22,331 nt of DNA, from the NCBI GenBank assembly GCA_020442225.1, contig JAGRKR010000090.1:1-22331 (forward strand), given 5' to 3'. Position 1 is the stretch's first letter, and each line of letters starts with the position of its first letter. The notes under the pieces are model-generated. The model ran no database searches. It had not been told where the DNA came from and worked only from the letters and a program-made list of their open reading frames with translations. The translations under genes and the position numbers were made by a program. Source of the stretch: Hyphomicrobiaceae bacterium. GTDB taxonomy: Bacteria > Pseudomonadota > Alphaproteobacteria > Rhizobiales > Hyphomicrobiaceae. Shown piece after piece: positions 7,237 through 20,803 of this stretch.

Positions 7237-7734
7237 TCAGCGCGCGAGGCCGCCCATGCGGCAGACCTCCGCCCACTCGGCCTCGCTCACCGGCTGCACC
7301 GACAGGCGGAACGACGTCACGAGGCTCATGCCGGCGAGCTTGGGATTGGCCTTGACCGCCGGCAGCGGCACGGGCTGCGGCATCGCCTCGAGCGCGCGGA
7401 CGTCGACGCACTCCCACGTGCCCGTCGTGTCCTCGGGATCGGGATGGGCGAGCGCGATCACCTCGGCGATGCCGACGACGGCGAGCCCGATGTTGGAATG
7501 ATAGAAAAAACAGCGGTCGCCGAGCTTCATGGCGCGCATGAAGTTGCGCGCCTGATAATTGCGCACGCCGGACCATGGCTCGCCCGCCGCCCCTCTGGCC
7601 ACCAGATCGTCCCACGAGAAGACGTCGGGCTCGGACTTCAGGAGCCAGAAGCCCGTGGAGACGACCGGCGCCGGGGATTTCCGGGTGGCTGTGGCGACAG
7701 CCTTGCGCGGCTTGGGTTTTGAGGACTTCGGCAT
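7237..7734 (-). CDS. EVE-domain protein (YTH/PUA-like nucleic-acid-binding)
   Basis: A 165-residue protein. Residues 1-26 are a lysine-rich tail (KPKPRKAVATATRK). From 29 onwards there is a complete EVE domain: FWLLKSEPDVFSW (29-41), WSGVRNYQARNFM (54-66), GDRCFFYHSN (72-81), VGIAEVI, AHPDPED, and a C-terminal RLSVQPVSEAEWAEVCRMGG. EVE proteins have a PUA-like fold thought to recognise modified bases in RNA or DNA; no partner nuclease is adjacent here. The basic tail is often present in alphaproteobacterial members. It lies 121 bases downstream of the ligase gene on the same strand but probably has its own promoter. Confidence 0.92.
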   Translation of the reverse strand: MPKSSKPKPRKAVATATRKSPAPVVSTGFWLLKSEPDVFSWDDLVARGAAGEPWSGVRNYQARNFMRAMKLGDRCFFYHSNIGLAVVGIAEVIALAHPDPEDTTGTWECVDVRALEAMPQPVPLPAVKANPKLAGMSLVTSFRLSVQPVSEAEWAEVCRMGGLAR

Positions 7735-7855
7735 CGTCAGCGGATCTCGCGTCGGCAGTGTTGGCGTTTGGCCGGCGCGTGAGCTCCGGCGCTGGTCCGA
7801 TAGGGTGTTATCATCACCCTGCGTCCGCCTGCAAACCGATCTCCCGGGCGCGCCG
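7735..7855 (-). promoter_or_regulatory. Spacer between ligase operon and EVE gene with a hairpin
   Basis: AGGGTG (7802-7807) and CACCCT (7815-7820) form a perfect 6-bp stem with a 7-base loop, 35 bases past the ligase stop. It may end the seven-gene operon, although no T-tract follows on the minus strand. A TTGCAG hexamer on the minus strand (about 7829-7834), with GATAACA 16-18 bases on, could be an EVE promoter overlapping the hairpin. Both are weak calls. Confidence 0.3.
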
Positions 7856-9274
7856 TCAGGCGAGAGCTGCTCGCAGCGCCGGATAATCCACCTTGGACCG
7901 ATGGCGACGGTCGAGCGGGATCGCGGCGAGTGCGACGACGCGCTCGATGCCGAGCCGGCGCGCATTGCGTTCCCACGTCCCGGCCTCGGCGCCATCGCCC
8001 TCGATGGCCAGCACCGGACGCCCGCCGATGCCTGCGAGTGCGGCCCGGCGCACACCCGGCCAGAAGCGGGCCGCCGCCTCGACGCCGAAGGGATGCAACG
8101 CCCCGACCCGCGCATCGACACGGCCGAGCAGCCACAACCGCCCCTCTTCGTCGAGCCGTCCGGCGTCGCCCGTGCGGTGCCAGATCTCTCCGTCGAGCGC
8201 GATCTTGCTGCCGGCGTTGCGGCTCGGGTCCATGTAGGTCTTGTTGACGTGCGCCCCGCTGACCACGATTTCGCCGTCGATGAGCCGCAGGGCCACGTCC
8301 GGCACCGGCCGGCCAGCGAGCAAGCCCGCGCCCTCCCGCATGGCGGCCCAGTCGGCGCTGGCGATCTCGTCGGCCCCGATGTGTGCGATCGGCTCCGCCT
8401 CGGTGGAGCCGTAGACGGCGACGATGCGACAGCCCGGCGAGGCGGCGGCAAGCCTCTCCATGACATCGGGGAAGACCGGCCCACCGCCGGTGAAGATGGC
8501 GGAGATCCCAGGCGGTGGGCCGCCCTCCGCGAGAGCCTCGCAGACCGACGGCGGCACGAGCAGCCGCGTCACGCCCCGCTCGCGCACGACAGCGGCGAGG
8601 GCTGCCGCCTCCACCTTGTCGTGCCGCGTCACATTCCAGGACGGCAGCACACTGGTGGTGCCCAGGGCCAGGTTCACGAGCACGAACACCGGGAACGCCA
8701 CGAGATCGCGCTCGTGCTCATGCCCGGCCACGAGCAGCGGCGAGACCGCGGCATGCTGAGCCGCCAGAAAGCCATGGGTGCGCTCGATGGCCTTCGGCAG
8801 ACCCGTTGAGCCGCTGGTGAAGGAAATCAGGGCGGGGTGATCGTCGGGCAGGGCGATCGTCGGCGTCCGCGTCGGCCGACGCCGGTCGGAAGCGAGCAGA
8901 AGTGGCCCCGTCCCCCAAAGCTCCGGCAGGGCGAAGCGCAGGCCTGCCAGCCAACCGCCCGAGAACACAGCGCGTGGGCGCGTCGCGCCAATCGCATGGC
9001 GCAGTCCTTTGAGACCCAGTGCGGGCTCGGGAAAAACCGCCACGGCGCCGAGACGCCAGAGTGCCGCCAGACCGGCATAGAGCGGCAGGCCGATGCGGGT
9101 GGCGATCAGCACGCGATCGCCGCGGCGGATTCCTTTCCGCCGCCAGCCTTCCGCGAGCTCATCCGACCAGAGCGCCAGCGCACTGAAACTGACGCTGCGA
9201 CCGCGCCCGTCGATGATCGCCGGATGCGCGCCTCGGCGCGCCGCGGTCGCGAGAAAGGCCTCGAGAATGCTCAT
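7856..9274 (-). CDS. AMP-forming acyl-acid ligase, OleC-like
   Basis: A 472-residue member of the ANL adenylating superfamily, slightly short for the family. Seen: P-loop SFTSGSTGLPK (151-161), adenine motif YGSTEAEP (288-295), HRTGD with Asp370, LWLLGRVDARVG hinge (381-391), and the C-terminal catalytic lysine region DRRHRSKVDY (Lys461). The stretch DLVAFPVFVLVNLALGTTSV and the YGSTEAEPIA-HIGADEI pattern resemble OleC, the beta-lactone synthetase that adenylates beta-hydroxy acids, more than standard acyl-CoA ligases. That assignment is by eye. It is the last gene of the seven-gene operon; its ATG overlaps the acyltransferase stop (ATGA). It may activate the acid precursor or a tail of the product. 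Confidence 0.85.
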   Translation of the reverse strand: MSILEAFLATAARRGAHPAIIDGRGRSVSFSALALWSDELAEGWRRKGIRRGDRVLIATRIGLPLYAGLAALWRLGAVAVFPEPALGLKGLRHAIGATRPRAVFSGGWLAGLRFALPELWGTGPLLLASDRRRPTRTPTIALPDDHPALISFTSGSTGLPKAIERTHGFLAAQHAAVSPLLVAGHEHERDLVAFPVFVLVNLALGTTSVLPSWNVTRHDKVEAAALAAVVRERGVTRLLVPPSVCEALAEGGPPPGISAIFTGGGPVFPDVMERLAAASPGCRIVAVYGSTEAEPIAHIGADEIASADWAAMREGAGLLAGRPVPDVALRLIDGEIVVSGAHVNKTYMDPSRNAGSKIALDGEIWHRTGDAGRLDEEGRLWLLGRVDARVGALHPFGVEAAARFWPGVRRAALAGIGGRPVLAIEGDGAEAGTWERNARRLGIERVVALAAIPLDRRHRSKVDYPALRAALA

Positions 9275-10143
9275 GCCCCGTCGTTCCCGACGAGCCGCCG
9301 CCCCATCAGCGCATAGCGGCGGAAAATCTCGCCACCTTCACGCACGCTGCGCTCCCTCGACACGTTGTCGACGTGCATCAGAGCATGGACGGCGTGCGTG
9401 AAGCCCGCTCTGCGCGCGCGCAGATTGAGGCTCGCCACGAGCATGCGGCCGACGCCGCGCCTGGCGCTGGCGTAGGTCTTGATGACGATCTCAGGTGCCG
9501 CCGCTGCCGCCATCGGATTGGGGTAGGCGAAGAGAAAACCGACGATCTCGCCGCCGGGCGCATGCGCAAACAGGATGAAGCGATGATCGAGCATCGGCAG
9601 AAGCGGCCGATAGAGATCGAGGAAAGCCGCGCGCGTGATGGGCTTGTAGAAGGCGTTCCGCGCGAAGGCCGACAGCGACATGTCGAAGATGCCGCCGATC
9701 AGCGCCTCGGCATCGCGTCCGTCCCACGCGACGACCTCGATGCCCTCCGACACGTCGGGCGCTTGCAACGCATCCAGCTCCGGCAATTGTGCCCGCGCCG
9801 ACACATAGCGCGAGATCGGCGCGAAGCCGGCTGCGGCGAAGGCCATGGCATCGGTGGCGCCGCTGACCGGCTCGAGCGGGAAGGCCGCGGAGCCGTCGCT
9901 CTCGGTCACGAGGCGATAGGCGTGCCAGGTGTCGCCATCCATCGGACCGATGACCGCCTCGAAGCCTTCGACGGCAGCGCGGTCGGCGACGGAGCAAAGC
10001 AGAGCCGAGCCCGCCGCCTCCGAGGGCGAGCGGAACTGGCCGACGGCGAGCGTCCTCAGGCCGTTCCAGCGCGGCGCGTCCCGAAAGAGACGCCCGCTCG
10101 CCTCGCCGAGCATGACGGTCTCGGGGGTCGAGTTTTCGCTCAT
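9271..10143 (-). CDS. GNAT-family N-acyltransferase
   Basis: A 290-residue soluble protein. The C-terminal half carries a GNAT core: FILFAHAPGGEIVGFLFAYP (strands 3-4), EIVIKTYASARRGVGRMLVA (strand 4, then the acyl-CoA loop ARRGVGRM and helix 3), and ALMHVDNVSRERSVREGG-EIFRRYALMGRRL (the N-x-S and YxLM end of the fold). The N-terminal 110 residues include GPMDGDTWHAYRLVTES and AAAGFAPISRYVSA, which resemble a duplicated, degenerate GNAT half seen in similar proteins. It would transfer an acyl group from CoA to an amine or hydroxyl. ATG 10143 is chosen for its GGAGGG site; ATG 10155 is a possible alternative. It lies inside the operon, coupled to both neighbours. Confidence 0.8.
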   Translation of the reverse strand: MSENSTPETVMLGEASGRLFRDAPRWNGLRTLAVGQFRSPSEAAGSALLCSVADRAAVEGFEAVIGPMDGDTWHAYRLVTESDGSAAFPLEPVSGATDAMAFAAAGFAPISRYVSARAQLPELDALQAPDVSEGIEVVAWDGRDAEALIGGIFDMSLSAFARNAFYKPITRAAFLDLYRPLLPMLDHRFILFAHAPGGEIVGFLFAYPNPMAAAAAPEIVIKTYASARRGVGRMLVASLNLRARRAGFTHAVHALMHVDNVSRERSVREGGEIFRRYALMGRRLVGNDGA

Positions 10144-10147
10144 TCGT

Positions 10148-10153
10148 CCCTCC
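10148..10153 (-). promoter_or_regulatory. Ribosome-binding site deciding the acyltransferase start
   Basis: GGAGGG on the minus strand, 4 bases before ATG 10143 and inside the coding frame that would begin at ATG 10155. It favours the shorter protein. Confidence 0.6.
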
Positions 10154-10154
10154 A

Positions 10155-11468
10155 TCAGGTCACCGACATGGACACGTATCCGACGAGCGGGATGGCGGCT
10201 GCCAGGGCGGCCACCCGGGGGCTGCGGTAGCGATCGAACCACTGCGGACTGGCAAGGGTGAGGCTCGCCACCACGACGAGGCTCGCCAGCGCCCAGCCTC
10301 TGAGGTCGCCGAAGTGTCGAGAGGTCGCCACGTCCAGGCTGGCCACGAGATGGAAGAGCACCATCAGCAGGCCGACCGCCGCGGCCGCGATGCCGATTTT
10401 CCAGACTCTCGGGCTGCCGGCCAGCGTCAGGCAGACCAGCGCCGCGGTCACACCGGCGAAGGTCAGGTTGTAGAAGCCGATTGCCGTCGGCCCGCTGTAC
10501 TCGCCGATGAACAGCCAGAACAGCGACAGCCCGACCAGCACGGCCAAATTGTCGAGATCGGGAAACGGGCTCCGCGTCGGCCGCGCCGCGCGCAAGGCGG
10601 CATGAGCGATGACGGCAAGCGCCGGCAATATGGCGTTGCCGGGCGAGGTGTATGAACAGATCAGGAAGAGCGCGACGGCATGGGCGCGGGCCGCATGCGG
10701 CGTGAGGCCGAGCGGCCGCCCGACCACGTGCATGAGCAGTACCACCGCCACGAATCCCGCTGCCAGGATCGCCAGCGCCAGCGGCGCGCTCGTCACGTGA
10801 CCCGCGAGAAACAGATGAAGACCGACCGGCAGGAACAGATTGTCGAAGCCACGCCAGGAGTCCGCCTCGATGAGCGCGCCGAAGGCCGCGATGAGCAGGC
10901 CGAGCGTCACCACGTTGGCCCGCGGCACGTCGGTCATGAGCAGCAACAGCACCATGGCGACGATCCATGTCACCAGGAAGAAGACAGCGACGCCTTCGAG
11001 GCTCTTGCTGCCGGCCTCCACGGCGAACGTACGCCGGCCATAGGCGCTTCCCGCGAGCGCTGCCGCCGCGTCCGAGAGCGTGAGCACGGCCAGCGGCAAC
11101 ACGTAGAGGACGGCGTTGCCTTGCGAGCGCACGAACAGAAAGCCGATGGATAAAGCCAGCAGCATGTCGCCGTAGGACGCGCGCTCGACGCCGTGCACCG
11201 TCGAGCCGATGCCGCGCTCTGCCAGAGCCGGCAGGCGCAACACGATCATAACGACGAGAGTGACGCCGACGAGCAGCAGCACCGGCCAGCGGCTCTGAAA
11301 CAGCAGCGGCAACAGCATGGCATAGGAGCCGGTCGCCACGTGCACGGCCTTACGCTGCAATTCCGCCGACCAGCCGAACCGATGACCGGCAGTCCGCACG
11401 CCCGCCATGACCGCAAGCAGTGCGCCGACGGAGCCGACGATGAGCGCGAGGTCGGCAAGGACGCTCAT
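10155..11468 (-). CDS. Phytol/dolichol-kinase-like (CTP-dependent polyprenol kinase) membrane protein with extra membrane half
   Basis: A 437-residue polytopic membrane protein. The N-terminal half (1-215) matches the dolichol kinase/VTE5 phytol kinase/phosphatidate cytidylyltransferase group: QRKAVHVATG (38-47), LSDAAAALAGSAYGRR with Asp133 (131-146), then KSLEG (155-159), the motif set used to bind CTP and phosphorylate long-chain alcohols. The second half (about 220-437) holds five to seven more hydrophobic segments that I do not recognise, with a conserved-looking LICSYTSPGNAILPAL and LFWLFIGEYSGPTAIGFYN. Usual kinases of this group are 200-300 residues, so this is a fusion or extended form. 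It sits in the operon between the BtaA-like and GNAT genes (ATGA overlap upstream) and probably phosphorylates the alcohol made there. Confidence 0.8.
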   Translation of the reverse strand: MSVLADLALIVGSVGALLAVMAGVRTAGHRFGWSAELQRKAVHVATGSYAMLLPLLFQSRWPVLLLVGVTLVVMIVLRLPALAERGIGSTVHGVERASYGDMLLALSIGFLFVRSQGNAVLYVLPLAVLTLSDAAAALAGSAYGRRTFAVEAGSKSLEGVAVFFLVTWIVAMVLLLLMTDVPRANVVTLGLLIAAFGALIEADSWRGFDNLFLPVGLHLFLAGHVTSAPLALAILAAGFVAVVLLMHVVGRPLGLTPHAARAHAVALFLICSYTSPGNAILPALAVIAHAALRAARPTRSPFPDLDNLAVLVGLSLFWLFIGEYSGPTAIGFYNLTFAGVTAALVCLTLAGSPRVWKIGIAAAAVGLLMVLFHLVASLDVATSRHFGDLRGWALASLVVVASLTLASPQWFDRYRSPRVAALAAAIPLVGYVSMSVT

Positions 11469-12580
11469 CCCACGACCTCCTCGACGACGAAATCCGAGTA
11501 GAAAAAGGCCTTGTCCTCAGCCTTCAAGCGATCCTCGTCCATCTGGCGACGCACGATGCGTGCGGCCAGATGCGCCGGCACGCGGCGCGGCACCATCATG
11601 TTCCAGTACACTAGGCGGGCGCCCGGATTGGCGGCAGAGAGCAGGCTCGCGTAGACCTCGGCAAAGACACCGGGCGACATGTACTCGAAGATGTCCGAGA
11701 GATTGAAGCCGTCGGCCTTCTCGCCCGTCGCCACGAAACGCTCGAGCGAACCCGACCGGATATCCAAGCGATCGAGCCGATCCCGGATCACGCCGAAATG
11801 CTCAGGCCGCCAGGCGAGCGGCAAGGCCTCTCGCTGCGCTCCGAGCAGGATGGCGGCGAGATAGGGATTGTCGACCGGATCGAGATCGACGACGGCATGC
11901 CTGATCCGGCGCGCCACGTGGGCCGCGACGCTTCCCTCGACATGTTCGAAGAAGGCGGCGTCACGGCCGAGCCGTCCCATCGCAAAGCGCGAGAAGAAGA
12001 GATTGAGGAGCAACCGCCAGCGCCACGTGCACCAGCGTTCGCGCAGAAAGGCCTCCCGCGCCTCGCGATCGCGACGCTCGAACACCGCCTCGACCGTCCG
12101 CCGTCCGTGCACGAGCGGCAGCAGGCGTTGCCGGAAGATGCGGAAGTAGCGCTCGAACTTGCCGACGCCGCCGAGGCCGAACGCCACAACCTCGCCGCGA
12201 CGCGCGCGCCAGAAGGCGGCCGTCTCCGGCGGCAGGGTGGCGATCACGCGATCGAGCAGCGCGCCCCGGTCGGCGGCGGGCCGCGCGCCGAGCAGCGCCA
12301 GGAACGCGTCATGATCGAGCACGCGATACGCCCCGATGCGCGCCTCGAGGCAGGCGATCTGCGCCCGCGAGAGATCGACCACGACGACCCGTGCGGGATC
12401 GAGGGTCAACATCGCCAGGGCATTGTCACCAGCCGACGAGATCGACACCAGCGTGGCGCCGGGTCGGCTCGCAAGCCCCCCGACGAGCACGTCGGCATCC
12501 TCCCAGAGCTGGGCATAGCGGATATCGTCGAACGACGCTTTGCCGGCGATCTCGCTTGCCGCGGCGCTTCCCTCAGCCAT
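11465..12580 (-). CDS. DUF3419/BtaA-like SAM-dependent 3-amino-3-carboxypropyltransferase homologue
   Basis: A 371-residue protein homologous by motif to BtaA, which moves the 3-amino-3-carboxypropyl group of S-adenosylmethionine onto the hydroxyl of diacylglycerol in betaine-lipid synthesis. Seen: IRYAQLWEDADVL (20-32), the SAM-binding SISSAGDNALAML (46-58), VVVVDLSRAQIACLEARI (66-83), VGKFERYFRIFRQRLLPLVH, WRWRLLLNLFFSRFAMGRLG, and late DGFNLSDIFEYMSP and RLVYWNMMVPRR. All are hallmark DUF3419 segments. BtaB, the N-methyltransferase that normally follows BtaA, is absent from this operon, so the acceptor may differ. The ATG at 12580 overlaps the upstream stop by 8 bases. Confidence 0.87.
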   Translation of the reverse strand: MAEGSAAASEIAGKASFDDIRYAQLWEDADVLVGGLASRPGATLVSISSAGDNALAMLTLDPARVVVVDLSRAQIACLEARIGAYRVLDHDAFLALLGARPAADRGALLDRVIATLPPETAAFWRARRGEVVAFGLGGVGKFERYFRIFRQRLLPLVHGRRTVEAVFERRDREAREAFLRERWCTWRWRLLLNLFFSRFAMGRLGRDAAFFEHVEGSVAAHVARRIRHAVVDLDPVDNPYLAAILLGAQREALPLAWRPEHFGVIRDRLDRLDIRSGSLERFVATGEKADGFNLSDIFEYMSPGVFAEVYASLLSAANPGARLVYWNMMVPRRVPAHLAARIVRRQMDEDRLKAEDKAFFYSDFVVEEVVG

Positions 12581-15053
12581 GATGCCGCCTCACGCTCCCG
12601 CTGACGCCGTCGACCTCGATCTCGTCACCGGTCGCGAGCCACTGCGTCGCTCCCTTCACGCCGACGACGCAGGGGATCCCGAGCTCCCGCGCGACGATGG
12701 CCGAGTGCGACAGCAGGCTGCCGCGCTCCACCACGATGGCCGAGGCATTGGCGAACACCGCGATCCAGCCGGGATCGGTATGTCGCGCCACGAGGATCTC
12801 ACCCGGCTCGAGCGCCTGCGAGCGCGGATCGGTGACGACGCGCGCCTTGCCGACGATGCGGCCCGCCGAACAGCCCGTTCCCATCCGCGCCTCGCCATTG
12901 CCGTCCGTGTCTGCGCTTCGCTCCGCGATCTGCGCCTCGGCCGATGCCGGCCGTCGGCATGCGACGGCGCCGGTGATCGTCACGCGCTCCGGCGGATCGG
13001 CCAGTGCGCGTCCTCGCGTCATCTCCGCCCGCCGGACCGCCACGAGCCCCTCGAGGTTGCTCGACACGCTGAACCCTTCGATGGCACCGAGCACCTCCTG
13101 GACCGTGAGCATCAGCACGTCGCCGGGCTCGGCTATGACCCCGTTCGCTGCAAGCTCCCGGCCCATGGCCATGAAGATGCGGCGCGCCCGGCCGAATACG
13201 CGCGTGCGCTCGAAGCGCAGGTTCTCGCGATCGCGCACGCGCGCCTTGGCAAGCGACAACGCCAGCCCGGCAATGCTGCGGCGAAGGGGACGCCCGGCGA
13301 ACAGGGCCTTCAGCTTGGCCCCGGCGTCGATGGTCTGGCGCTCGAGCTGGGGCGGCCGCTCGGCAGCGGCGGCGATGGCCAGGAGAAGGGGCGTCGGGTC
13401 CTCGTCGAGCGTGGTGCTTTCGAGCTTCAGTTCCTCGGTGCAGCGATCACCGAACTTGGCGAGATAGCTGTCGATGCCGCCGCGAATACCGGGGTGCCCT
13501 GCGAGCGCGGCCAGACCGTCGCGCCGCAGCGCCGCCGACAGCCCCGGAGCGGCCGAGACCTCGCGGCCGAGCGCCGCGATGCGCTGTGCCGGCTCGGCGG
13601 AGACGATGTCGCCCTGACCGATCAGCACGTCGTTGTGGAGGGCCAGCCCTTCCGCTCCGAGCCACCTCTCGAGGAGCTTGCGCGAGGCGCCGAAGGCGAT
13701 CATGCACAGGAAATCGTTGACCAGTGGCGCGTCCCAGCGGTCCAGCAACTCCGCCTCGATGCGTCTGTACTCGGCGGCGAGCGCCGTCAACGGCGCCGTC
13801 TCGAGATCGAGCGCGGCGCGGCCGAGGGCAGCATCGAGCCGGCGGTTGAAGTCGCGGATGGTCCCTTGCAGCCGCACCGCCGCCAGCGACATGCGCCATG
13901 CCATACGTGCGATGCGGCCCCATTCCGCCACGACCGACAAGCCGCGTGGGCGAGGCGGCGCCAGGCGATCGGCGATGTCTGCGGGCAGCGGCTCACCGAC
14001 ACCCATCATGGTCTCCATGTGGGCACGATTGCTTGCGAACCCCGGCAGCAGGGCCAGGCAGCGGTACCAGTTGATCAGGTTGTAGTAGACCCGGCCATCG
14101 AGCCGGCCCAGCATGTTGTCGAAGGCCGCCGCGTTGGCGCGCACGCGCGCCTCGGGCACGCCGAGCAGACCGACGAAGGCACGATAGACCCGCGCGTAGG
14201 CGTACTGCGCGAAGCTGTAGGTCAGCGGCGAGACGAGCCCTGGATAGCTCTCGACGATGTTGGAGTTGTCGAAGATCGTCACGGTTGCGTCGGGAAGCGG
14301 CGTCGCCGACAGGCGCGACGTGATGGGGCGCGTCTGCAGGACGTGGAGGCGATCCGCCTCAAAGGCCCACTCGATGTCCTGCGGCGCCCCCATGGCAGCC
14401 TCGATGCGCCGGGCCATGTCTGCGAGCCCGGCGAGGTCGCGCGCGCTCAGCGGTCCGTCGGCCTCGAGCGGCGCGCTCGGCACGCCGGTTGCCTTGTCGA
14501 GCGCATAGTCGACGCCGTCCACCTCGCCCGAGACCAGGCGATCGGCAAGCCCAGCCGTAGCGGAAACCACCATGCGGTCGCGGCGCCCGGCCACGGGATC
14601 GGCGGTGAAGACCACTCCGGCCGCTCGTGCCGGCACCATGCGTTGTACGATAACGGCCGGTGCACCATCGTTCGCGTCGAGAGCATGCTGGCGGCGATAG
14701 GCGACGACGCTCTCGGAGAATCCCGAGCGCCAGACCTCATGCGCCGCCGCCGGCACCTCCGCGACTGGGACGTTGAGGCGTGACAGGAACTGCCCCGCGT
14801 GCGAATGCGCTGCTCCGTCCTCCTGACGCCCCGAGGAGCGTACCGCGAACGGCCCCGGACCGAGGCTCGACAGTGCGCGCGAGAGATCGCCGGCCGCTTC
14901 CGGCTTGAGCCCGCTCTCGTCGAAGGCCGCCGGCGAGATGGCGAAGAACTCCGGTGGCGCGAAGCCCGCCGTCGCGAGGCGCGCCAGCGCCGCCGCCTTG
15001 CCGCCGACGTGCTCGACGTCGTGGGCCTCGCCCATGGCGTAGACGTATTTCAT
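12573..15053 (-). CDS. PEP synthase / rifampin-phosphotransferase-like phosphotransferase
   Basis: An 826-residue three-part enzyme. Residues 1-260 form an ATP-grasp domain: GGKAAALARL, FAVRSSGRQEDG, IVQRMVPARAAGVVFTADPV and DIEWAFEADRLHVLQTRPIT. The middle (about 270-720) is a variable substrate domain rich in helices (WYRCLALLPGF, DFLCMIAFGASRKL, FGDRCTEELKLE). The C-terminal swivelling phosphohistidine domain has ILVARHTDPGW and GSLLSHSAIVARELGIPCVVG, with His783 as the probable phospho-carrier. The family includes pyruvate/PEP synthases and antibiotic (rifampin) phosphotransferases. The two-domain-plus-linker order is closer to the rifampin phosphotransferase type than to glycolytic PEP synthase, so a small-molecule or lipid phosphorylation is likely (inference). 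It overlaps UbiA by four bases (ATGA). Confidence 0.88.
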   Translation of the reverse strand: MKYVYAMGEAHDVEHVGGKAAALARLATAGFAPPEFFAISPAAFDESGLKPEAAGDLSRALSSLGPGPFAVRSSGRQEDGAAHSHAGQFLSRLNVPVAEVPAAAHEVWRSGFSESVVAYRRQHALDANDGAPAVIVQRMVPARAAGVVFTADPVAGRRDRMVVSATAGLADRLVSGEVDGVDYALDKATGVPSAPLEADGPLSARDLAGLADMARRIEAAMGAPQDIEWAFEADRLHVLQTRPITSRLSATPLPDATVTIFDNSNIVESYPGLVSPLTYSFAQYAYARVYRAFVGLLGVPEARVRANAAAFDNMLGRLDGRVYYNLINWYRCLALLPGFASNRAHMETMMGVGEPLPADIADRLAPPRPRGLSVVAEWGRIARMAWRMSLAAVRLQGTIRDFNRRLDAALGRAALDLETAPLTALAAEYRRIEAELLDRWDAPLVNDFLCMIAFGASRKLLERWLGAEGLALHNDVLIGQGDIVSAEPAQRIAALGREVSAAPGLSAALRRDGLAALAGHPGIRGGIDSYLAKFGDRCTEELKLESTTLDEDPTPLLLAIAAAAERPPQLERQTIDAGAKLKALFAGRPLRRSIAGLALSLAKARVRDRENLRFERTRVFGRARRIFMAMGRELAANGVIAEPGDVLMLTVQEVLGAIEGFSVSSNLEGLVAVRRAEMTRGRALADPPERVTITGAVACRRPASAEAQIAERSADTDGNGEARMGTGCSAGRIVGKARVVTDPRSQALEPGEILVARHTDPGWIAVFANASAIVVERGSLLSHSAIVARELGIPCVVGVKGATQWLATGDEIEVDGVSGSVRRHHG

Positions 15054-15991
15054 GCGCCGCCTCCCAGAGCGAGCGGCAGGAAGCCGGCCGTCGCGTAGCA
15101 TGCGGCCACCCAGAGGCCGGCCACGAGATCGATGCGGGCCTGGCTGGCCGCGCTCGGGCGGCGGCGGAAGTCGCGCACGATCCGCAATGCGCCCACCAGC
15201 GCGGCCGCGGCAACAACAGCCGTAGCGACCAGCGTGCCGGTCATGGCTCCGACGCAGATCAGCAGCAGGGCGGACGTGGCGAGGCAGGCCGCGAGCACCG
15301 AGACGGCCCGCTCCAGCCCCCATAGCTTCGAATAGGTCTCGACGCCCATGCGTTCCTGCTCGGGCGCCATGATCTTGCGGCCGATCTCGAGGATGCAACC
15401 GTTGACGAAGCTGAGCAGCAGAAAGAGCCACAGTCCCGCCGGCGGGGACCCGGCCCGCGGCAGCCATTCGCACGCCGTCACGAACAGATCGATCAGCGGC
15501 ATGATCAGCATGTGCGAGACGAGGTACACCAGCGGCCGCGCCTTGAGCCAGTCGGGCGCCCCGAACTCGACGGACATCAAGCCAAGCCACAGCCACACGC
15601 CCAGCAAGGGTACGGCGAGCGCGCCGTGATAGCCGGCGGCGAGCACCAGTGCGACAGGGGTGAGGCCAACGGCGATGGCGACGATGAGCCTGAGCGAGAC
15701 GAGCCCGCGCGGAATCGGCCGCTCCGGCCGGAAGGCAGCGTCGTCCTCGCGATCCTTGACCTCGTCCGAGGCGCGCAACTGGGCGAAGATGATGAAGCAG
15801 ACGATCCAGGCGACCGCATAGGCCGCCAGACCGGGCCGTGCGACACCGGCCAGAAAGGCCGAGACGTTGATGCTCGCAGCGCTGAACACCAGCAGCAGAC
15901 CGAGCGTACGGACGAGCGGCAGCCGCTCGCTCTGGTAGATCCATAGACGCGCCGCGAGACCGAGCTGCGCCTCGCCAGACACTGCATGCAT
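15050..15991 (-). CDS. UbiA-family membrane prenyltransferase, atypical
   Basis: A 313-residue membrane protein with about eight or nine hydrophobic helices. The first UbiA motif is present in the cytosolic loop: LRASDEVKDREDD (72-84) followed by RPERPIPRG, giving a DxxxDxxxD pattern where most members have NxxxDxxxD. The second motif is altered to EIGRKIMAPEQERMGVETYSKLWG in place of DxxGDxxxG. UbiA enzymes transfer polyprenyl chains to aromatic, glycerol-phosphate or other acceptors. The altered sites suggest a distinct acceptor, but which one cannot be told. The start at 15991 touches the HMG-CoA reductase stop (TGATG), so the two genes are coupled. Confidence 0.85.
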   Translation of the reverse strand: MHAVSGEAQLGLAARLWIYQSERLPLVRTLGLLLVFSAASINVSAFLAGVARPGLAAYAVAWIVCFIIFAQLRASDEVKDREDDAAFRPERPIPRGLVSLRLIVAIAVGLTPVALVLAAGYHGALAVPLLGVWLWLGLMSVEFGAPDWLKARPLVYLVSHMLIMPLIDLFVTACEWLPRAGSPPAGLWLFLLLSFVNGCILEIGRKIMAPEQERMGVETYSKLWGLERAVSVLAACLATSALLLICVGAMTGTLVATAVVAAAALVGALRIVRDFRRRPSAASQARIDLVAGLWVAACYATAGFLPLALGGGA

Positions 15992-17262
15992 CAGCGCCTC
16001 CTTGCGAGCAGTTCGTGAGCCCGGGCGAAATGACCGGCCGCGATGGCGCCGATGATGGAGATTTCTCCGGCGAGACAGAGCACGGCCGCGACTTCCGCAA
16101 GCGCCGCGGCCTTGCCCGTGCCAGCGAGCCCGAGGATGGCCAGTCCCGCCGACTGGGACGGCAGTCCGGTTCCGCCGCCGACGCTGCCGACCAAGATATT
16201 GGGCAGCGTCACCGAGACGCGGAGATCGCCGTTGTGCCCCTCCATGCGCGTGTAACCCACGGCGGATTCCGCCACGCAGGCGGCGTCCTGGCCGGTCGCC
16301 AGGTAGAGCGCCGCGAGGCCGTTGGCATAGTGGCCCTGCGCGCCCATCTGACCGGACAGCAGCGCGCCGAGGTTCGCCATGCGGGCATAGTCCAGCATGC
16401 GTTCGACGGTGGTGTGCAGGCGACGCTCGACGAGCGCGCGCTCGAGCACCACGCTCGCCGTCACCTTGCGCCCGCGGCCGCGCACCATGCCGAGATAGGA
16501 GGCCTTCTTGTCGCCGGAGAGGTTCGCCTCGATGAACCAGTAGAGTGGCTTGACCGGCACATGGGCCACCAGATGCCGGCAAAGCGCGTCGGTCGCGATC
16601 GTGACCATGTTCTGGCCGGCGGCATCGCCCGTCTCGTAGCGGCAGAGCAGGAAGACGACATTGTCGTCGATGACAGGTTCGAGCGCCACGAGCTTACCGT
16701 GGCGTGTGGTCGACTCGGCTGCCGCCTTGAGAGCCGCCGCATTGCCTGCGACCCACTCGATGAAGAGGCCGGCGTCGAGGAGCGAGCCGAAGGCGAAGCC
16801 CGGGCTGCGCCAGACCCCATCGTGTGCGAGCGCTGCACTCGCGCCGCCGGCTGCCGTGATGATCTCGGCGCCTCGCGCATAGGACGCGACGAGCGCCGCC
16901 TCCGTCGTCGCCAGGGGCACCAGGTAATCGCCGTTGGCGTGCGTGCCGTTGATGCGCAGCGGCCCGGCAAGCCCGACAGGCAGCTTTACCGTCCCGATCA
17001 TGTTCTCGATGTTTGCCGCATAGCGCGTCAGGCTGGCGCGCGTCGCCGGATCAGCGAGCGCAGCCTCATCATCGGCGCTGGCGGCGGTCTCTGCTCGCAG
17101 CCGCCGCCAGAAGGCCTCGACACTGCCGACCGTCGCGTCGCGCACGATCCGAAACCGTCGCGCCGGCGCCGTGCGACAGGCCAGTCGCTGTCGCAACTGG
17201 CCGTCGGTCGCACTCGCGCGCAACCGCTTGAGCATTTCCGCAACTGTCGCCGATATGAGCAC
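15991..17262 (-). CDS. Class I 3-hydroxy-3-methylglutaryl-CoA reductase (NADPH type)
   Basis: A 423-residue soluble reductase, without the membrane anchor of eukaryotic enzymes. Every class I signature is visible: ENMIGTVKLPVGLAGPLRING (86-106), PLATTEAALVAS with catalytic Glu121, DAAGQNM (213-219, cofactor loop), SGDKKAS with Lys252, TGQDAACVAES with Asp326, VGSVGGGTGLPSQ (358-370) and LCLAGEISIIG-AIAAGHFARAH with His416. The reaction is four-electron reduction of HMG-CoA to mevalonate, or of a similar acyl-CoA thioester to an alcohol. The start is a GTG at 17262 (GGAAG upstream); ATG 17235 is an alternative. It leads the seven-gene operon. No other mevalonate-pathway gene is in the window. 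Confidence 0.95.
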   Translation of the reverse strand: MLISATVAEMLKRLRASATDGQLRQRLACRTAPARRFRIVRDATVGSVEAFWRRLRAETAASADDEAALADPATRASLTRYAANIENMIGTVKLPVGLAGPLRINGTHANGDYLVPLATTEAALVASYARGAEIITAAGGASAALAHDGVWRSPGFAFGSLLDAGLFIEWVAGNAAALKAAAESTTRHGKLVALEPVIDDNVVFLLCRYETGDAAGQNMVTIATDALCRHLVAHVPVKPLYWFIEANLSGDKKASYLGMVRGRGRKVTASVVLERALVERRLHTTVERMLDYARMANLGALLSGQMGAQGHYANGLAALYLATGQDAACVAESAVGYTRMEGHNGDLRVSVTLPNILVGSVGGGTGLPSQSAGLAILGLAGTGKAAALAEVAAVLCLAGEISIIGAIAAGHFARAHELLARRR

Positions 17263-17398: not shown

Positions 17399-18717
17399 TC
17401 AAAACCCGTCGGCGGGGCGATCGAGGCCGAAGTGCGAACGCAGCGTCTCGCCTTCGTAGGCGGTGCGGAAGAGGCCGCGCTTCTGCAGGATCGGCAGCAC
17501 CTCGGCGATGAAGGCGTCGAGCATGCCCGGCAGCAGCGGCGGCATCAGGTTGAAGCCGTCGGCGGCGCCGGAGTCGAACCAGTCGACGATGAGGTCGGCG
17601 AGCTGCTCCGGCGTGCCCGTGAACGTGAAATGACCGCGCGCGCCGGCGAGCTTGGCGAGCAGCTGGCGCAGCGTCGGCCGTTCGCGCTTGACCATGCCGA
17701 CGATCACCTCCGTGCGGCTGCGCGCCGCCTGCACGTCGTCGGGATCGGGGAAGTCCTCGGGTGAGAGCGGCTTGTCGAGCGGCAGGTGCGAGAAGTCGTG
17801 CCCGCCGAAGCGGCCCGAGAGGCGCTTGCGGCCGACCTCGGGGTCGGCGAGGTTGTTGAGCTCGTCGGCGAGCTTCTGCGCCTCCGCGACCGTGCCGCCG
17901 AGCACCGCGCTCAGGCCCGGCAGGACCAGCACCTGGTTGGGCGCGCGTCCCTCCGTCACGGCATGCGCCTTGATGTCGGCATAGAAGGTCTGCGCCGTCG
18001 ATTTCTCCATGTGCGCGGTGAAGATCGCCTCGGCGTGGCGCGCGGCGAAGCGCCGGCCCGTGTCGGAGGACCCCGCCTGCACCAGCACCGGCCGGCCCTG
18101 CGGCCCGCGCGGCACGTTGAGCGGCCGGTGACGGAATAGTACTTGCCCTCGTGATTGACGGGACGGATGCGGTCAGGCTGCGCGTAGCGGCCGCTCGCAC
18201 GGTCGTCGAGGATGGCATCGTCGGCCCAACCGTCCCACAGCCCCTTGACGACCTTGAGATACTCCTCCGCCCGCTCGTAGCGCTCGGCGTGGCTCACCTG
18301 GCTCGTGTCGCCGAAATTGCCGGCCGCCTCCACCGCCCAGGTCGTGACGATGTTCCAGCCGACGCGCCCGCCGCTGATGTGATCGAGCGAGGCGTACTGG
18401 CGCGCCAGGTTGTAAGGCTCGGTGTAGGTCGTGGACGCCGTCGCGATCATGCCGATGCGCTTCGTCACCATCGAGACGGCGCCGATGGCGCTCACCGGCT
18501 CGAGCCAAGTGCGCGCCGCGCGCTCGATGTCGTTCCACAGCGAAAGCGTATCAGCGAGGAAGATGGAGTCGAGCAGACCGGCCTCCGCCTTCTGCGCCAG
18601 CTCCTGGAAATAGCGGATGTCGGTGAGTGGGTAGGCCGATGCCTGGGGATGGCGCCAGGAAGCCTCGTGATGCCCACGGCTCTGGATGAACAGGTTGAAG
18701 TGAAGCTGCCGTTTCAT
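17399..18717 (-). pseudogene. NtaA/SnaA/DszA/SoxA-family FMN-dependent monooxygenase, broken by a -1 frameshift
   Basis: Two overlapping frames together encode a family-typical protein of about 439 residues. The N-terminal frame (18717 to about 18124) has QLHFNLFIQSRGHHEASWRH, DSIFLADTLSLWNDIERAAR, TASTTYTEPYNLARQYASLD and GGRVGWNIVTT. It ends in-frame with VNHEGKYYSVTG and then turns to nonsense. The C-terminal frame picks up PRGPQGRPVLVQAGSSDTGR, ATP-independent core HAEAIFTAH, and FTGTPEQLADLIVDWF to the TGA at 17399. Restoring one G at about 18123 (plus strand, GCGGCC to GCGGGCC) rejoins the two. Enzymes of this group use reduced FMN to oxidise sulfur or chelator compounds (luciferase-like barrel). 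It is a true pseudogene or a sequencing error. ATG 18744 is an alternative start. Confidence 0.85.
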
Positions 18718-18744
18718 GTGCCTGCGCTCGTGTTTGCTTGCCAT

Positions 18745-18855
18745 CGGAAATTCATCCGGACAACCGTATCTCGACGAGACCGCACTTGGCAAATTCTGAG
18801 CCTTGCAGGAGTGCCAATGCGGCAATCCTGCGGCAATTGGACCTTCGGGAGCCGC
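18745..18855 (-). promoter_or_regulatory. Spacer upstream of the monooxygenase with an 11-base-period repeat
   Basis: TGCGGCAAT occurs twice, at 18818-18826 and 18829-18837, one helical turn apart, within an element bounded by CCAAT and ATTGG. A TTGCCA hexamer on the minus strand with GATACG about 16 bases on is a possible monooxygenase promoter. The repeats could be regulator half-sites, or a terminator region of the phosphatase gene. Confidence 0.3.
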
Positions 18856-19635
18856 TCAGCGGACCCGGATGGCGATCACGGTCGTATTGTCCTGATAAGG
18901 ATCGCCGCCACCCTCGACGGCGTCGAGCAGCCCGCTCACCACGGCCTCGACACCGCGCGACGCAGTCGCCCCGATCGTGCGGGTGATCTGCTCCTCGCTC
19001 AGCGTCTCGATGCCGTCGGTCGCCATGACGACGATGTCCCCAGGCTCTAGAGCGATCGCGTTCTCCGGCCGGTCGACCAACTCAATCGCGCTGCCCATCA
19101 GCGCCGAGCGCAGATAGTGGCGGCGCGGATCGGTCAGCGCCTCCTCCAGGCTCATCTTCCCCTCAGCGACCATCTCGTCGAGCATCGGAGCCAACGAGTG
19201 ATCCTCGTTGAGAATGGCAAGCTGGCCGTCACGGAATACGAAAAGCAGGGAATCCCCGACACTGACCCAGCTCAGACCTTGCGGACCGATGATGGCGCCG
19301 ATCAGCGTGCAGCCCATGCCCGACAGTCGCGGCTCGGCATGGATGCGCCGGGCGATCGCTTCATTCGCCTCCGCGAGCGCCACATCGAGGCGACGCGTAA
19401 CAGGTCCGGCCGCTGCCGAGATGGCCCCGAGAAAGGTTTCGCAGGCCGTGCTGCTGGCGACGGCTCCGCCGACATGTCCGCCCATGCCGTCGGCAAGCAC
19501 GGCGACGAGTTCGCCGGCGCTGCCTCCATTCGCCGTCTCCGTCGTGGCACTTGCCGACCAGACGGCAGCGGAATCCTCCTGATAGCTGCGGCCACCTTGT
19601 ATCGACCGGCTCGCGTGTTCGAACATGGCGCGCAT
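18856..19635 (-). CDS. PP2C-family serine/threonine phosphatase
   Basis: A 259-residue metal-dependent phosphatase. Seen in order: RSYQEDS with the metal-binding Asp21, ADGMGGH (48-53), GMGCTLIG (106-113), VSVGDSLLFVFRDG (125-137), the acidic ATDGIETLSE (205-214) and the terminal QDNTTVIAIRV (248-258) with Asp249. All metal ligands of the PppA/Stp1 type are present and the length is standard. It would reverse Ser/Thr phosphorylation by the kinase encoded at 21843. The start is ATG 19635 (GAGGG ten bases upstream) or the nearby ATG 19626. It is separated from the FHA gene by 246 bases, so it may have its own promoter. Confidence 0.95.
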   Translation of the reverse strand: MRAMFEHASRSIQGGRSYQEDSAAVWSASATTETANGGSAGELVAVLADGMGGHVGGAVASSTACETFLGAISAAAGPVTRRLDVALAEANEAIARRIHAEPRLSGMGCTLIGAIIGPQGLSWVSVGDSLLFVFRDGQLAILNEDHSLAPMLDEMVAEGKMSLEEALTDPRRHYLRSALMGSAIELVDRPENAIALEPGDIVVMATDGIETLSEEQITRTIGATASRGVEAVVSGLLDAVEGGGDPYQDNTTVIAIRVR

Positions 19636-19881
19636 GCCACTTGATCCCTCGTTGCAGCCGGCATCCGTCGGCAGCCGTCACCCCGGCGGCGCGCCGCATG
19701 GGTGGCCTCCGGCAGCACGCTCCGGCCACCGGTTCCTGCCGCGATCCAGGCCTCGGCAAGAGGCCGCTCGCCCCGCGCCTAGCCGTCTCGCGAGGCCACG
19801 GTCATGCCACTGCGCGCTCGATCCGTAATGGAGGTAGCAACACCTGCCCCGATGTCAACGGGGCACAGAGTACAACTCCTG
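19636..19881 (-). promoter_or_regulatory. Spacer between FHA and PP2C genes: hairpin and candidate promoter
   Basis: TGCCCCG (19845-19851) / CGGGGCA (19859-19865) is a perfect 7-bp stem with a 7-base loop, 17 bases past the FHA stop. The loop carries, on the minus strand, a perfect TTGACA (plus 19853-19858), followed after 16 bases by TACCTC (plus 19831-19836) preceded by TGC (an extended -10). So the same element may terminate the FHA transcript and start the PP2C one, leaving a leader of about 190 bases. I see no open frame worth reporting in the rest of the spacer. Confidence 0.4.
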
Positions 19882-20700
19882 TCACTCCTTGAGCTCGGTC
19901 AGCTCGGACCAGTCGAACTCCGACCCGCAGAACGGCACGAAGACGAGCTGGGTGCGGCCCATCGTAATGACGTCCATGGCTGTCAGCTCCACCGCTGCCG
20001 TCGGCTTTTTGTCGTTGATCTGCACGACGTTGGTCTTGGCGAGGTTCGGCACGAACAGGTACTTGCGGTCGCTCGAGTCGTAGCGGATATAGGCCTGCTC
20101 GGCCGTCGAGATCGACTCGTCGCCGAAATCGATCGGAATACGCTGCGAGGACGAGCGGCCCACCGTGTTGTTGCCCTCGAAGATCGGCCGATAGGCGCCG
20201 AGGCCCGGCCCGCCGATGACCACCAGCCAGGCGACCACCGGATCCTGATGGAACTGAGTGCGTCCGAGCTTCTGCTTGCCGCGGATCAACTGCGTGCGTG
20301 GCTGGGCGTCACCACCCCGTCCGAGTGCCGACGAGCGCAGCGACCGCGACACCGGCAGCTCCTGCGGCTCGGCGGCGGCGCGCGGCCGTTGCGAGGCTTC
20401 GGGCTGGATCGGCGCCGCAACCGGCGCTGGCGCCCGCTCGCTGCGGACCGGCACGGGCTGAGCCACGGCCATCGGCTCGACAGGGGCGGGCAGCGCCGGG
20501 CGTTCCGGCACGCCGGCCTCGCTCTTGCTTTCCGGTCTGCGGGCCGGGCGTCCCGTCGGCTCCTCCGAGACCGGGTCAAGCGTGTGCTCGCCGCGGCTGG
20601 CAGCCGCCAGGGCATCCTGCAAAGTCCCGAGGAAGCGATTGCGGGGCTTGTCCGCTCCGCCTGCTGCACCACCCTTGGCTTTGCGATCGTCTTCGGCCAT
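19882..20700 (-). CDS. Cytoplasmic FHA-domain protein
   Basis: A 272-residue protein with a charged, Pro/Ala-rich disordered half (1-150) and a C-terminal FHA fold (about 157-257): WLVVIGGPGLGAYRPIFEGN, NTVGRSSSQRIPIDFGDESI, STAEQAYIRYD, NVVQINDKKP and ITMGRTQLVFVPF. The GRS core (Gly181-Arg182-Ser183) is intact, but the usual SRxH loop reads TAEQ (199-202), so phosphothreonine recognition may be altered. The ending EFDWSELTELKE is acidic. FHA proteins bind phosphothreonine on partners of a kinase, here probably the kinase at 21843. ATG 20700 is fixed by GGGAGG (plus 20707-20712). Confidence 0.92.
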   Translation of the reverse strand: MAEDDRKAKGGAAGGADKPRNRFLGTLQDALAAASRGEHTLDPVSEEPTGRPARRPESKSEAGVPERPALPAPVEPMAVAQPVPVRSERAPAPVAAPIQPEASQRPRAAAEPQELPVSRSLRSSALGRGGDAQPRTQLIRGKQKLGRTQFHQDPVVAWLVVIGGPGLGAYRPIFEGNNTVGRSSSQRIPIDFGDESISTAEQAYIRYDSSDRKYLFVPNLAKTNVVQINDKKPTAAVELTAMDVITMGRTQLVFVPFCGSEFDWSELTELKE

Positions 20701-20706
20701 GTCAAA

Positions 20707-20712
20707 CCTCCC
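20707..20712 (-). promoter_or_regulatory. Strong ribosome-binding site of the cytoplasmic FHA gene
   Basis: GGGAGG on the minus strand, six bases before the ATG at 20700. It rules out the longer open frame that begins at 20760. Confidence 0.7.
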
Positions 20713-20803
20713 AGCCTGATGTTCCGCCACGCGCGACTGCCGCGGCGGCCTGCCCTGCAATTCCCTCGTCGCGCCGGCCTCGTAGAGTGGGCCGGCGTCC
20801 GGC

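What the first reader, a model, noticed from the sequence alone, without database searches (positions are those of the whole stretch)
7856..17262. Seven-gene operon with an HMG-CoA reductase, UbiA-like prenyltransferase and lipid-modifying enzymes: a possible undescribed lipid/terpenoid pathway
The genes overlap or touch at every junction and all read one way, so they are very probably one transcript. The enzymes fit together chemically: an OleC-like ligase activates an acid, a thioester reductase yields an alcohol, a polyprenol-type kinase and a PEP-synthase-like enzyme phosphorylate, UbiA prenylates, a BtaA-like enzyme adds an aminocarboxypropyl group, and a GNAT acylates. I know of no named pathway with this set. 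The order of steps and the product are inference.
Basis: partly seen in the sequence, partly recalled or inferred. Interest (0 to 1): 0.88.

Follow-up and report, generated by a model that had tools for sequence, protein, structure and literature searches.

The report
Seven-gene operon for an unknown aminolipid
Seven adjacent genes, kept in the same order in dozens of bacterial species, likely build an undescribed lipid, and one of them resembles HMG-CoA reductase, the statin target, but is predicted to work on a different molecule.

Summary
Seven minus-strand genes (17262 to 7856) overlap at five of six junctions. A scan seeded with the DUF3419 gene alone kept 80 loci; 69 have all seven as ORFs in the same order, and 9 of the other 11 are cut by contig ends. 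In 24 operon genomes HMG-CoA synthase and mevalonate-diphosphate decarboxylase were found in 0 of 24 each, so the HMGR does not feed a classical mevalonate pathway. It keeps its catalytic residues, but human Ser684 and Lys735, which contact the HMG part of statins, are Glu and Ala in 74 of 74 rows. Natural fusions join DUF3419-HMGR-kinase (2 proteins), AMP-ligase-DUF3419 (1) and VTE5-GNAT (1). My reading: DUF3419 adds an aminocarboxypropyl group to a lipid alcohol, GNAT acylates its amine, ligase and HMGR reduce its carboxyl to an alcohol, and a phosphotransferase phosphorylates it; UbiA supplies a prenyl chain. All reactions, their order and the product are inference. No description turned up in the searches run.

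The parts
15991..17262 (-). HMG-CoA-reductase-like class I enzyme (423 aa, GTG start); catalytic E121, K252, D326, H416 kept; human S684 and K735 replaced by E245 and A296
   Evidence: PF00368 352.5 bits; alignments; E245 and A296 in 74 of 74 rows
15050..15991 (-). UbiA-superfamily prenyltransferase (313 aa); first Asp motif D76/D80/D84, second motif replaced by E202-GRK-E213
   Evidence: PF01040 45.5 bits, cut-off 34.2; closest solved structure DGGGP synthase 6m31, E 7e-4
12573..15053 (-). PEP-synthase/rifampin-phosphotransferase/PigC-like enzyme (826 aa): ATP-grasp plus swivelling His domain (H783), no PEP/pyruvate barrel matched
   Evidence: PF01326 and PF00391 only; NCBIfam NF004881 685.3 bits, below its cut-off 883; H783 in 78 of 79 ungapped rows
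11465..12580 (-). DUF3419 protein (371 aa), BtaA superfamily: predicted SAM:alcohol 3-amino-3-carboxypropyltransferase
   Evidence: PF11899 187.9 bits, cut-off 28.2; fused to HMGR-kinase or AMP-ligase elsewhere
10155..11468 (-). VTE5/dolichol-kinase-like membrane protein (437 aa): kinase/CdsA-type N-half plus an extra helical C-half
9271..10143 (-). Tandem GNAT acyltransferase (290 aa)
7856..9274 (-). AMP-forming (ANL) ligase (472 aa) of the PRK09274/OleC-like group; A10 lysine K461 present; F194-P195-V196 where NRPS domains carry the Asp for an alpha-amine (recalled)
   Evidence: PF00501 136.9 bits; NF006754 275.2 bits, cut-off 478

Best explanation
The seven genes form one conserved operon that likely builds an undescribed prenylated amino-alcohol lipid, in which an HMG-CoA-reductase-fold enzyme would reduce the carboxyl end of a SAM-derived aminocarboxypropyl group instead of making mevalonate. 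Proposed route: (1) the DUF3419 enzyme, like BtaA, transfers the 3-amino-3-carboxypropyl group of SAM to the hydroxyl of a lipid alcohol. (2) The tandem GNAT acylates the new alpha-amine. (3) The AMP-ligase adenylates the carboxyl and passes it to CoA. (4) The HMGR-like enzyme reduces the thioester with two NADPH to CH2OH; its acidic residue at human position 684 would face an amine or amide N-H where HMG-CoA carries a carboxylate. (5) A phosphotransferase (PPDK-like here, an APH/choline-kinase domain in the fused relatives) phosphorylates the alcohol. (6) UbiA attaches a prenyl chain and the VTE5/CdsA-like membrane enzyme phosphorylates or activates the lipid; where these two act is not known. 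Some lineages would then decorate the chain by P450 hydroxylation and sulfation. Shown: the conserved gene set, the enzyme families, the intact catalytic residues with a changed HMGR pocket, no match to two other mevalonate-pathway enzymes in 24 sampled genomes, and the fusions. Inferred: every reaction, the order and the product.
For: Seven genes in order in 69 of 80 loci (the other 11 accounted for). HMG-CoA synthase 0 of 24, mevalonate-PP decarboxylase 0 of 24, DXR 19 of 24 operon genomes (24 of the 80 were given; completeness not told). HMGR catalytic K252, D326, H416 in 74 of 74 rows, but S684E and K735A also in 74 of 74. [quoted passage not shown] Canonical HMGRs keep Ser/Lys: human, M. 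thermolithotrophicus, four small alphaproteobacterial genomes and a Streptomyces HMGR downstream of an ORF with a decarboxylase-like motif. Fusions: DUF3419-HMGR-APH kinase P0238 and P0241; AMP-ligase-DUF3419 P0242, both halves related to the window's proteins (39% over 482 and 37% over 381 aligned positions); VTE5-GNAT P0114. In 121 HMGR-bearing proteins (P0121-P0241) position 684 is E in 112, D in 8, gap in 1; 82 of the 120 listed carry the APH domain PF01636. Streptomyces L111: GH3 adenylating enzyme next to HMGR-APH and a thymidylate-kinase-like gene. P450 and sulfotransferase genes beside the operon in some lineages.
Against: The AMP-ligase lacks the Asp that binds alpha-amines in NRPS adenylation domains (recalled), so it fits the carboxyl only if the amine is already acylated. 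Lone Vibrio/Photobacterium HMGRs (four loci) carry Asp at 684 with none of the other six genes in the fetched flanks, so the acid is not exclusive to this pathway. The Streptomyces plasmid with HMGR-APH has no DUF3419. The kinase in the fusions is APH-type, which the window lacks. DUF3419-HMGR fusions are rare: 2 proteins found, hosts unknown. In HMG-CoA the carboxylate is on C5 whereas the proposed amine is on C2, so the fit is not straightforward. Arg590, Lys692 and Asn686 are retained, so HMG-CoA binding is not excluded. The acceptor alcohol and the roles of UbiA and VTE5 have no direct evidence.
Confidence: 0.45

Rival explanations
1. Isoprenoid-acid activation: the AMP-ligase and HMGR turn a branched isoprenoid acid into its alcohol, VTE5 and the PPDK-like enzyme phosphorylate it twice (as plant VTE5 and VTE6 do, recalled), UbiA transfers the resulting prenyl group to an acceptor, and DUF3419 and GNAT modify that acceptor. 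This is.
For: Two phosphotransferase-like proteins sit in an operon with a UbiA. The Streptomyces cluster shows adenylation (GH3), HMGR-APH and a thymidylate-kinase-like second kinase in a row. VTE5 homologues are named phytol kinases. The ligase shows no alpha-amine Asp.
Against: DUF3419 is fused directly to HMGR-kinase and to the ligase, which this order does not predict. 19 of 24 hosts have DXR, so they should make prenyl diphosphates already (inference).
Confidence: 0.22
2. Mevalonate as a building block: HMGR makes mevalonate from HMG-CoA of leucine catabolism, the ligase activates it, and GNAT transfers a mevalonyl group to the amine installed by DUF3419, as SidI and SidF do in fungal siderophore synthesis (recalled).
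For: The HMGR catalytic set is intact; HMG-CoA synthase and mevalonate-PP decarboxylase were not found, so mevalonate would not be drained; ligase plus GNAT in one operon fits activation and N-acyl transfer.
Against: The residue that salt-bridges the HMG carboxylate is Ala in 74 of 74 rows, and Ser684 is Glu in 74 of 74. HMGR is fused to a kinase and DUF3419, not to GNAT.
Confidence: 0.13
3. A small secreted metabolite or signal instead of a membrane lipid, made by the same chemistry.
For: P450 and sulfotransferase genes beside the operon in some lineages; PPDK-like relatives sit in Streptomyces and Methylocystis gene clusters with biosynthetic enzymes; an ABC-transporter-ATPase-type protein lies near 24 of 80 loci, though on both sides and strands at a median of 3.3 kb, so probably background.
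Against: Two likely membrane enzymes and a BtaA-type step point to a lipid; no exporter lies inside the seven-gene set.
Confidence: 0.15
4. Ordinary terpenoid supply: HMGR boosts isoprenoid precursors for UbiA.
For: HMGR and UbiA are adjacent.
Against: HMG-CoA synthase in 0 of 24 and mevalonate-PP decarboxylase in 0 of 24 genomes; changed HMG pocket.
Confidence: 0.03

Closest known systems
Betaine-lipid synthesis (BtaA/BtaB)
   Same: DUF3419 family protein; BtaA matches Pfam DUF3419 (PMC6642084, passages)
   Different: No N-methyltransferase among the seven genes; an AMP-ligase, HMGR, GNAT, UbiA and two phosphotransferase-like proteins instead
Class I HMG-CoA reductase (mevalonate pathway)
   Same: Family match and all catalytic residues
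   Different: S684 and K735 replaced; HMG-CoA synthase and mevalonate-PP decarboxylase not found in 24 genomes tested
HMGR-APH 'phosphotransferase' fusions of Actinobacteria (e.g. P0121, P0230)
   Same: Acid at 684 and no Lys at 735; reductase coupled to a phosphotransferase domain
   Different: Kinase is APH-type and fused; no function found in the searches run
VTE5-VTE6-VTE2 (plant phytol salvage and tocopherol, recalled)
   Same: Phytol-kinase-like protein and a UbiA prenyltransferase
   Different: No VTE6-type protein among the seven; PPDK-like, DUF3419, GNAT and ligase added
Sulfomenaquinone tailoring CYP128A1-Stf3 (PMC7404182, passages)
   Same: P450 plus sulfotransferase pair, here beside a UbiA operon in some lineages
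   Different: Not part of the seven-gene core; substrate unknown
Archaeal DGGGP synthase
   Same: Closest solved UbiA relative (6m31, E 7e-4); O-prenylating (recalled)
   Different: Second metal motif replaced; acceptor unknown

Membership tests
HMG-CoA reductase (mevalonate-forming) | Class I family match and catalytic Glu, Lys, Asp, His | tested here: met
   PF00368; K252, D326, H416 in 74 of 74 rows, E121 in 73 plus 1 gap
HMG-CoA reductase (mevalonate-forming) | Ser684 and Lys735 that contact the HMG moiety | tested here: not met
   E245 and A296 in 74 of 74 rows; role from a PMC9500038 passage
HMG-CoA reductase (mevalonate-forming) | NCBIfam equivalog cut-off (TIGR00533, 441.8 bits) | tested here: not met
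   324.5 bits
Mevalonate pathway | HMG-CoA synthase and mevalonate-PP decarboxylase in the same genomes | tested here: not met
   0 of 24 and 0 of 24; the window's own genome is not held
Betaine-lipid synthesis | DUF3419 (BtaA) domain | tested here: met
   187.9 bits, cut-off 28.2
Betaine-lipid synthesis | BtaB-type N-methyltransferase with BtaA | tested here: inconclusive
   None among the seven operon genes nor among the recurrent neighbours listed; rest of the genomes not searched
Rifampin phosphotransferase / PigC-RedH ligases | ATP-grasp plus PEP-utilizer His domain without PEP/pyruvate barrel | tested here: met
Rifampin phosphotransferase / PigC-RedH ligases | Family cut-offs RPH 999, PigC 1300, RedH 1350 bits | tested here: not met
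   237.6, 260.1 and 284.2 bits
OleC beta-lactone synthetase | NCBIfam OleC cut-offs (900, 850 bits) | tested here: not met
   151.2 and 135.2 bits
VTE5/dolichol kinase | CTP-dependent kinase family match | tested here: inconclusive
UbiA superfamily | PF01040 and first Asp-rich motif | tested here: met
   45.5 bits; D76 and D80 in 75 of 76 rows, D84 in 76 of 76
UbiA superfamily | Prenyl transfer activity and acceptor | not testable with these tools
   needs assay

The most novel reading that the evidence does not exclude
A new class of bacterial membrane lipid, a 'homoserinol lipid', built on a four-carbon amino alcohol made by a split carboxylic acid reductase: an AMP-ligase plus an HMG-CoA-reductase-fold enzyme that has abandoned mevalonate and reduces an N-acylated aminocarboxypropyl ether. 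The product would be N-acyl, O-prenyl and phosphorylated, a built-from-SAM mimic of ceramide phosphate or phosphatidic acid, and the actinobacterial HMGR-APH fusions would be a second branch of the same chemistry.
Probability: 0.3. Interest if true: 0.92.

Novelty: categorically new. Interest (0 to 1): 0.78.

Why it matters
HMG-CoA reductase is among the best-studied enzymes in biology and is usually taken as a marker of the mevalonate pathway. Here is a group annotated as HMGR whose sampled genomes show no HMG-CoA synthase or mevalonate-diphosphate decarboxylase, whose HMG-binding residues are swapped, and whose relatives are physically fused to an aminocarboxypropyltransferase-type protein and a kinase. 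If the reading is right, it reveals an unknown lipid in bacteria such as Ruegeria, Roseovarius, Sulfitobacter, Bosea and Devosia, explains many 'HMG-CoA reductase' and 'phosphotransferase' annotations in Actinobacteria, and adds a new thioester-to-alcohol reductase chemistry. It is directly testable in cultured strains such as Roseovarius nubinhibens ISM (locus L054).

Tried and rejected

Corrections and dropped rows: the PPDK query was translated in a wrong frame; redone. In one search, HMGR hits L090, L091 and L093-L095 (low identity or short matches, probably class II) were left out of the comparison, though L090 is printed; L092 and L101 gave no hit. In one search the 735 column is shifted for some rows (L100 and L112 print N); searches give Lys for them; no Lys within two columns of 735 in 120 of 121 relatives (P0228 has one at -1); 2 of 74 operon rows have a Lys within two columns but not at 735. 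The ABC-ATPase neighbour family (24 of 80 loci) was set aside as superfamily background.
Full report
WHAT IS THERE. Seven minus-strand genes run from 17262 to 7856: HMGR, UbiA, a PEP-synthase-like phosphotransferase, DUF3419, a VTE5-like membrane protein, GNAT and an AMP-ligase. Five junctions overlap by 1, 4, 8, 4 and 4 nt; VTE5 to GNAT has an 11-nt gap. There are no tRNAs in the window, and GC in 1-kb steps lies between 0.63 and 0.72.

IT IS CONSERVED AS A UNIT. A scan of one genome per species for relatives of the DUF3419 protein alone gave 178 relatives, of which the best 80 were kept. 69 of 80 have all seven genes as ORFs in the window's order; in 67 of these every ORF is at least 90% as long as the window's, while the HMGR of L022 and the ligase of L051 are short, at contig edges. 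The other 11: nine (L019, L040, L043, L048, L059, L070, L075, L079, L080) are cut by a contig end; L052 has all seven and misses the count only by the choice of a start codon; L072 shows all seven in order as partial tblastn matches. L043 also has a broken PPDK reading frame. Hosts are Rhodobacterales, Hyphomicrobiales (Bosea, Devosia, Chelativorans, Hyphomicrobium, Rhizobium), Dongia, Marinicaulis, a Sphingomonadales MAG, two Halomonas and a Granulosicoccaceae MAG. In a tree of the concatenated proteins of 72 loci (window included) the Halomonas operon sits beside Chelativorans, which suggests transfer into Gammaproteobacteria. In the plasmid collection one record, Roseinatronobacter sp. S2, holds the operon. 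It is rare overall: apart from the seed genome G009, a full-length VTE5-type protein was found in none of 397 Pseudomonadota and none of 384 Alphaproteobacteria drawn; one and six of them, respectively, matched with the kinase half or less (at most four candidates per genome are scored).

THE HMGR IS NOT A MEVALONATE-PATHWAY ENZYME IN CONTEXT. In 24 of the 80 genomes (those I gave to the calls; completeness not told) HMG-CoA synthase PF01154 is found in 0 of 24 and mevalonate-diphosphate decarboxylase TIGR01240 in 0 of 24, while DXR is in 19 of 24. The five without DXR (L033, L036, L057, L062, L064) were not followed up. The 14 control genomes rang in 7, 8 and 9 cases; over the cut-off in 6, 2 and 9. 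Mevalonate kinase was not searched.

ITS HMG POCKET IS CHANGED. Aligned with human HMGR, the window enzyme keeps Glu559, Arg590, Asn686, Asp690, Lys691, Lys692, Asp767 and His866, but Ser684 is Glu245 and Lys735 is Ala296. Over 74 rows (window plus 73 loci) both changes are in 74 of 74. [quoted passage not shown] Controls with Ser and Lys: human, M. thermolithotrophicus and L097-L100, and Streptomyces L112, which lies downstream of an ORF with the motif NIALIKYWGKRDE that I recall as mevalonate-diphosphate decarboxylase. Non-canonical ones: Vibrio and Photobacterium L102-L104 and L113 have Asp with Thr or Asn, Alteromonas L105 Ala/Ser, Streptomyces L111 Glu/Thr. None of the other six operon proteins has a relative (E up to 1e-5) in the fetched flanks of L102-L106 or L113. 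In a tree of 33 sequences the non-canonical enzymes and Sinorhizobium L106 group apart from the canonical ones (support 0.91), and the operon and Vibrio enzymes group together (support 1.0).

GENE FUSIONS LINK THE STEPS. A protein search with the Streptomyces HMGR-APH protein gave 1398 matches at E up to 0.001, which may include HMGRs without the kinase; of the 120 listed, 82 carry APH PF01636, and the names given include Streptomyces, Actinoplanes, Actinomadura, Nonomuraea, Nocardia and Solirubrobacterales. In 121 such proteins (P0121-P0241) position 684 is E in 112, D in 8 and a gap in 1; no Lys lies within two columns of 735 in 120 of 121. P0238 (1167 aa) and P0241 (1170 aa) are DUF3419-HMGR-APH in one chain, and P0242 (897 aa) is AMP-binding-DUF3419. 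The search that found them lists 8 proteins, the other five being DUF3419 with methyltransferase domains. P0242 matches the window ligase at 39% over 482 aligned positions and the window DUF3419 at 37% over 381; P0238 matches the window HMGR at 40% over 374. P0114 (722 aa), one of 120 listed VTE5 relatives, is VTE5-GNAT. Streptomyces L111 has a GH3 adenylating enzyme, HMGR-APH and a thymidylate-kinase-like gene in a row, but that plasmid has no DUF3419.

NEIGHBOURING GENES. A P450 of one type lies beside the operon in 16 of 80 loci, with a sulfotransferase within 3.5 kb in 13; five further loci have a different P450 directly upstream (L001, L005, L011) or downstream (L053, L063) on the same strand, and L025 has one 1.7 kb downstream on the other strand. 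Of ten proteins given to Pfam, seven are p450, one Sulfotransfer_3, one an SDR, and P0114 has no family. The pair recalls CYP128A1 and Stf3, which hydroxylate and sulfate menaquinone-9 (PMC7404182, passages). An ABC-ATPase-type protein is near 24 of 80 loci on both sides and strands, median 3.3 kb, which I take as background.

MECHANISM. The fusions tie aminocarboxypropyl transfer, carboxyl adenylation, thioester reduction and phosphorylation together, and those reactions make chemical sense in that order on one carboxyl group. GNAT would acylate the amine first, which would explain why the ligase has no alpha-amine Asp. The acid at HMGR position 684 would face an N-H donor where a carboxylate normally sits. 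This is inference. The weakest points are the acceptor alcohol, the placement of UbiA and VTE5, and the C2/C5 geometry.

NOVELTY. Searches in the open paper library showed no description of this gene set; one search gave betaine-lipid papers and one search gave SAL (PMC8319176, passages), a roseobacter aminolipid that needs salA. The library lacks most subscription papers and all preprints, so a description elsewhere cannot be excluded. I mark it categorically new because I know of no pathway that shares more than one or two of its steps, while most of its enzymes belong to known superfamilies.

Noticed in passing
window 17399-18825 (-): A gene that looks like an LLM-class flavin monooxygenase upstream of the operon is split between two overlapping frames (ORFs 17956-18825 and 17399-18115), a frameshift or sequencing error (family named from the sequence, no family search).
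   Followed up: no
window 7237-7660 (-): An EVE-domain-like protein follows the operon downstream, inside ORF 7237-8484 (family recalled from sequence).
   Followed up: no
window 18856-21520 (-): A PP2C-like phosphatase and two FHA-like proteins lie in a row (families recalled).
   Followed up: no
L102, L103, L104, L113: Vibrio and Photobacterium carry a lone non-canonical HMGR (Asp at human 684, no Lys at 735), 53-56% identical to the window's, with none of the other six genes in the fetched flanks; its function is open.
   Followed up: partly
L111 6083-10995: Streptomyces plasmid cluster: GH3 adenylating enzyme, HMGR fused to an APH kinase, thymidylate-kinase-like protein; ORFs that look like CysD, CysN and APS kinase follow on the other strand (recalled from sequence).
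   Followed up: partly
L105 3271-10032: Alteromonas macleodii plasmid: thermostable-hemolysin family protein, AMP-ligase, haem-oxygenase-like protein, SDR and two further genes precede a non-canonical HMGR (Ala/Ser).
   Followed up: no
L106 7414-12123: Sinorhizobium HMGR-like gene inside a biotin-dependent carboxylase cluster, with a shortened cis-loop.
   Followed up: no
L107, L108, L109: PPDK-like relatives sit in Streptomyces clusters with AfsA-like and isoprenylcysteine-methyltransferase-like genes, and in a Methylocystis cluster with aminotransferases and an acyl carrier protein.
   Followed up: no
L072, L043: The Hyphomicrobium MAG copy (L072) shows short ORFs for HMGR, UbiA and GNAT, and the Sphingomonadales MAG copy (L043) a gap in PPDK, perhaps frameshifts or assembly errors.
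   Followed up: no
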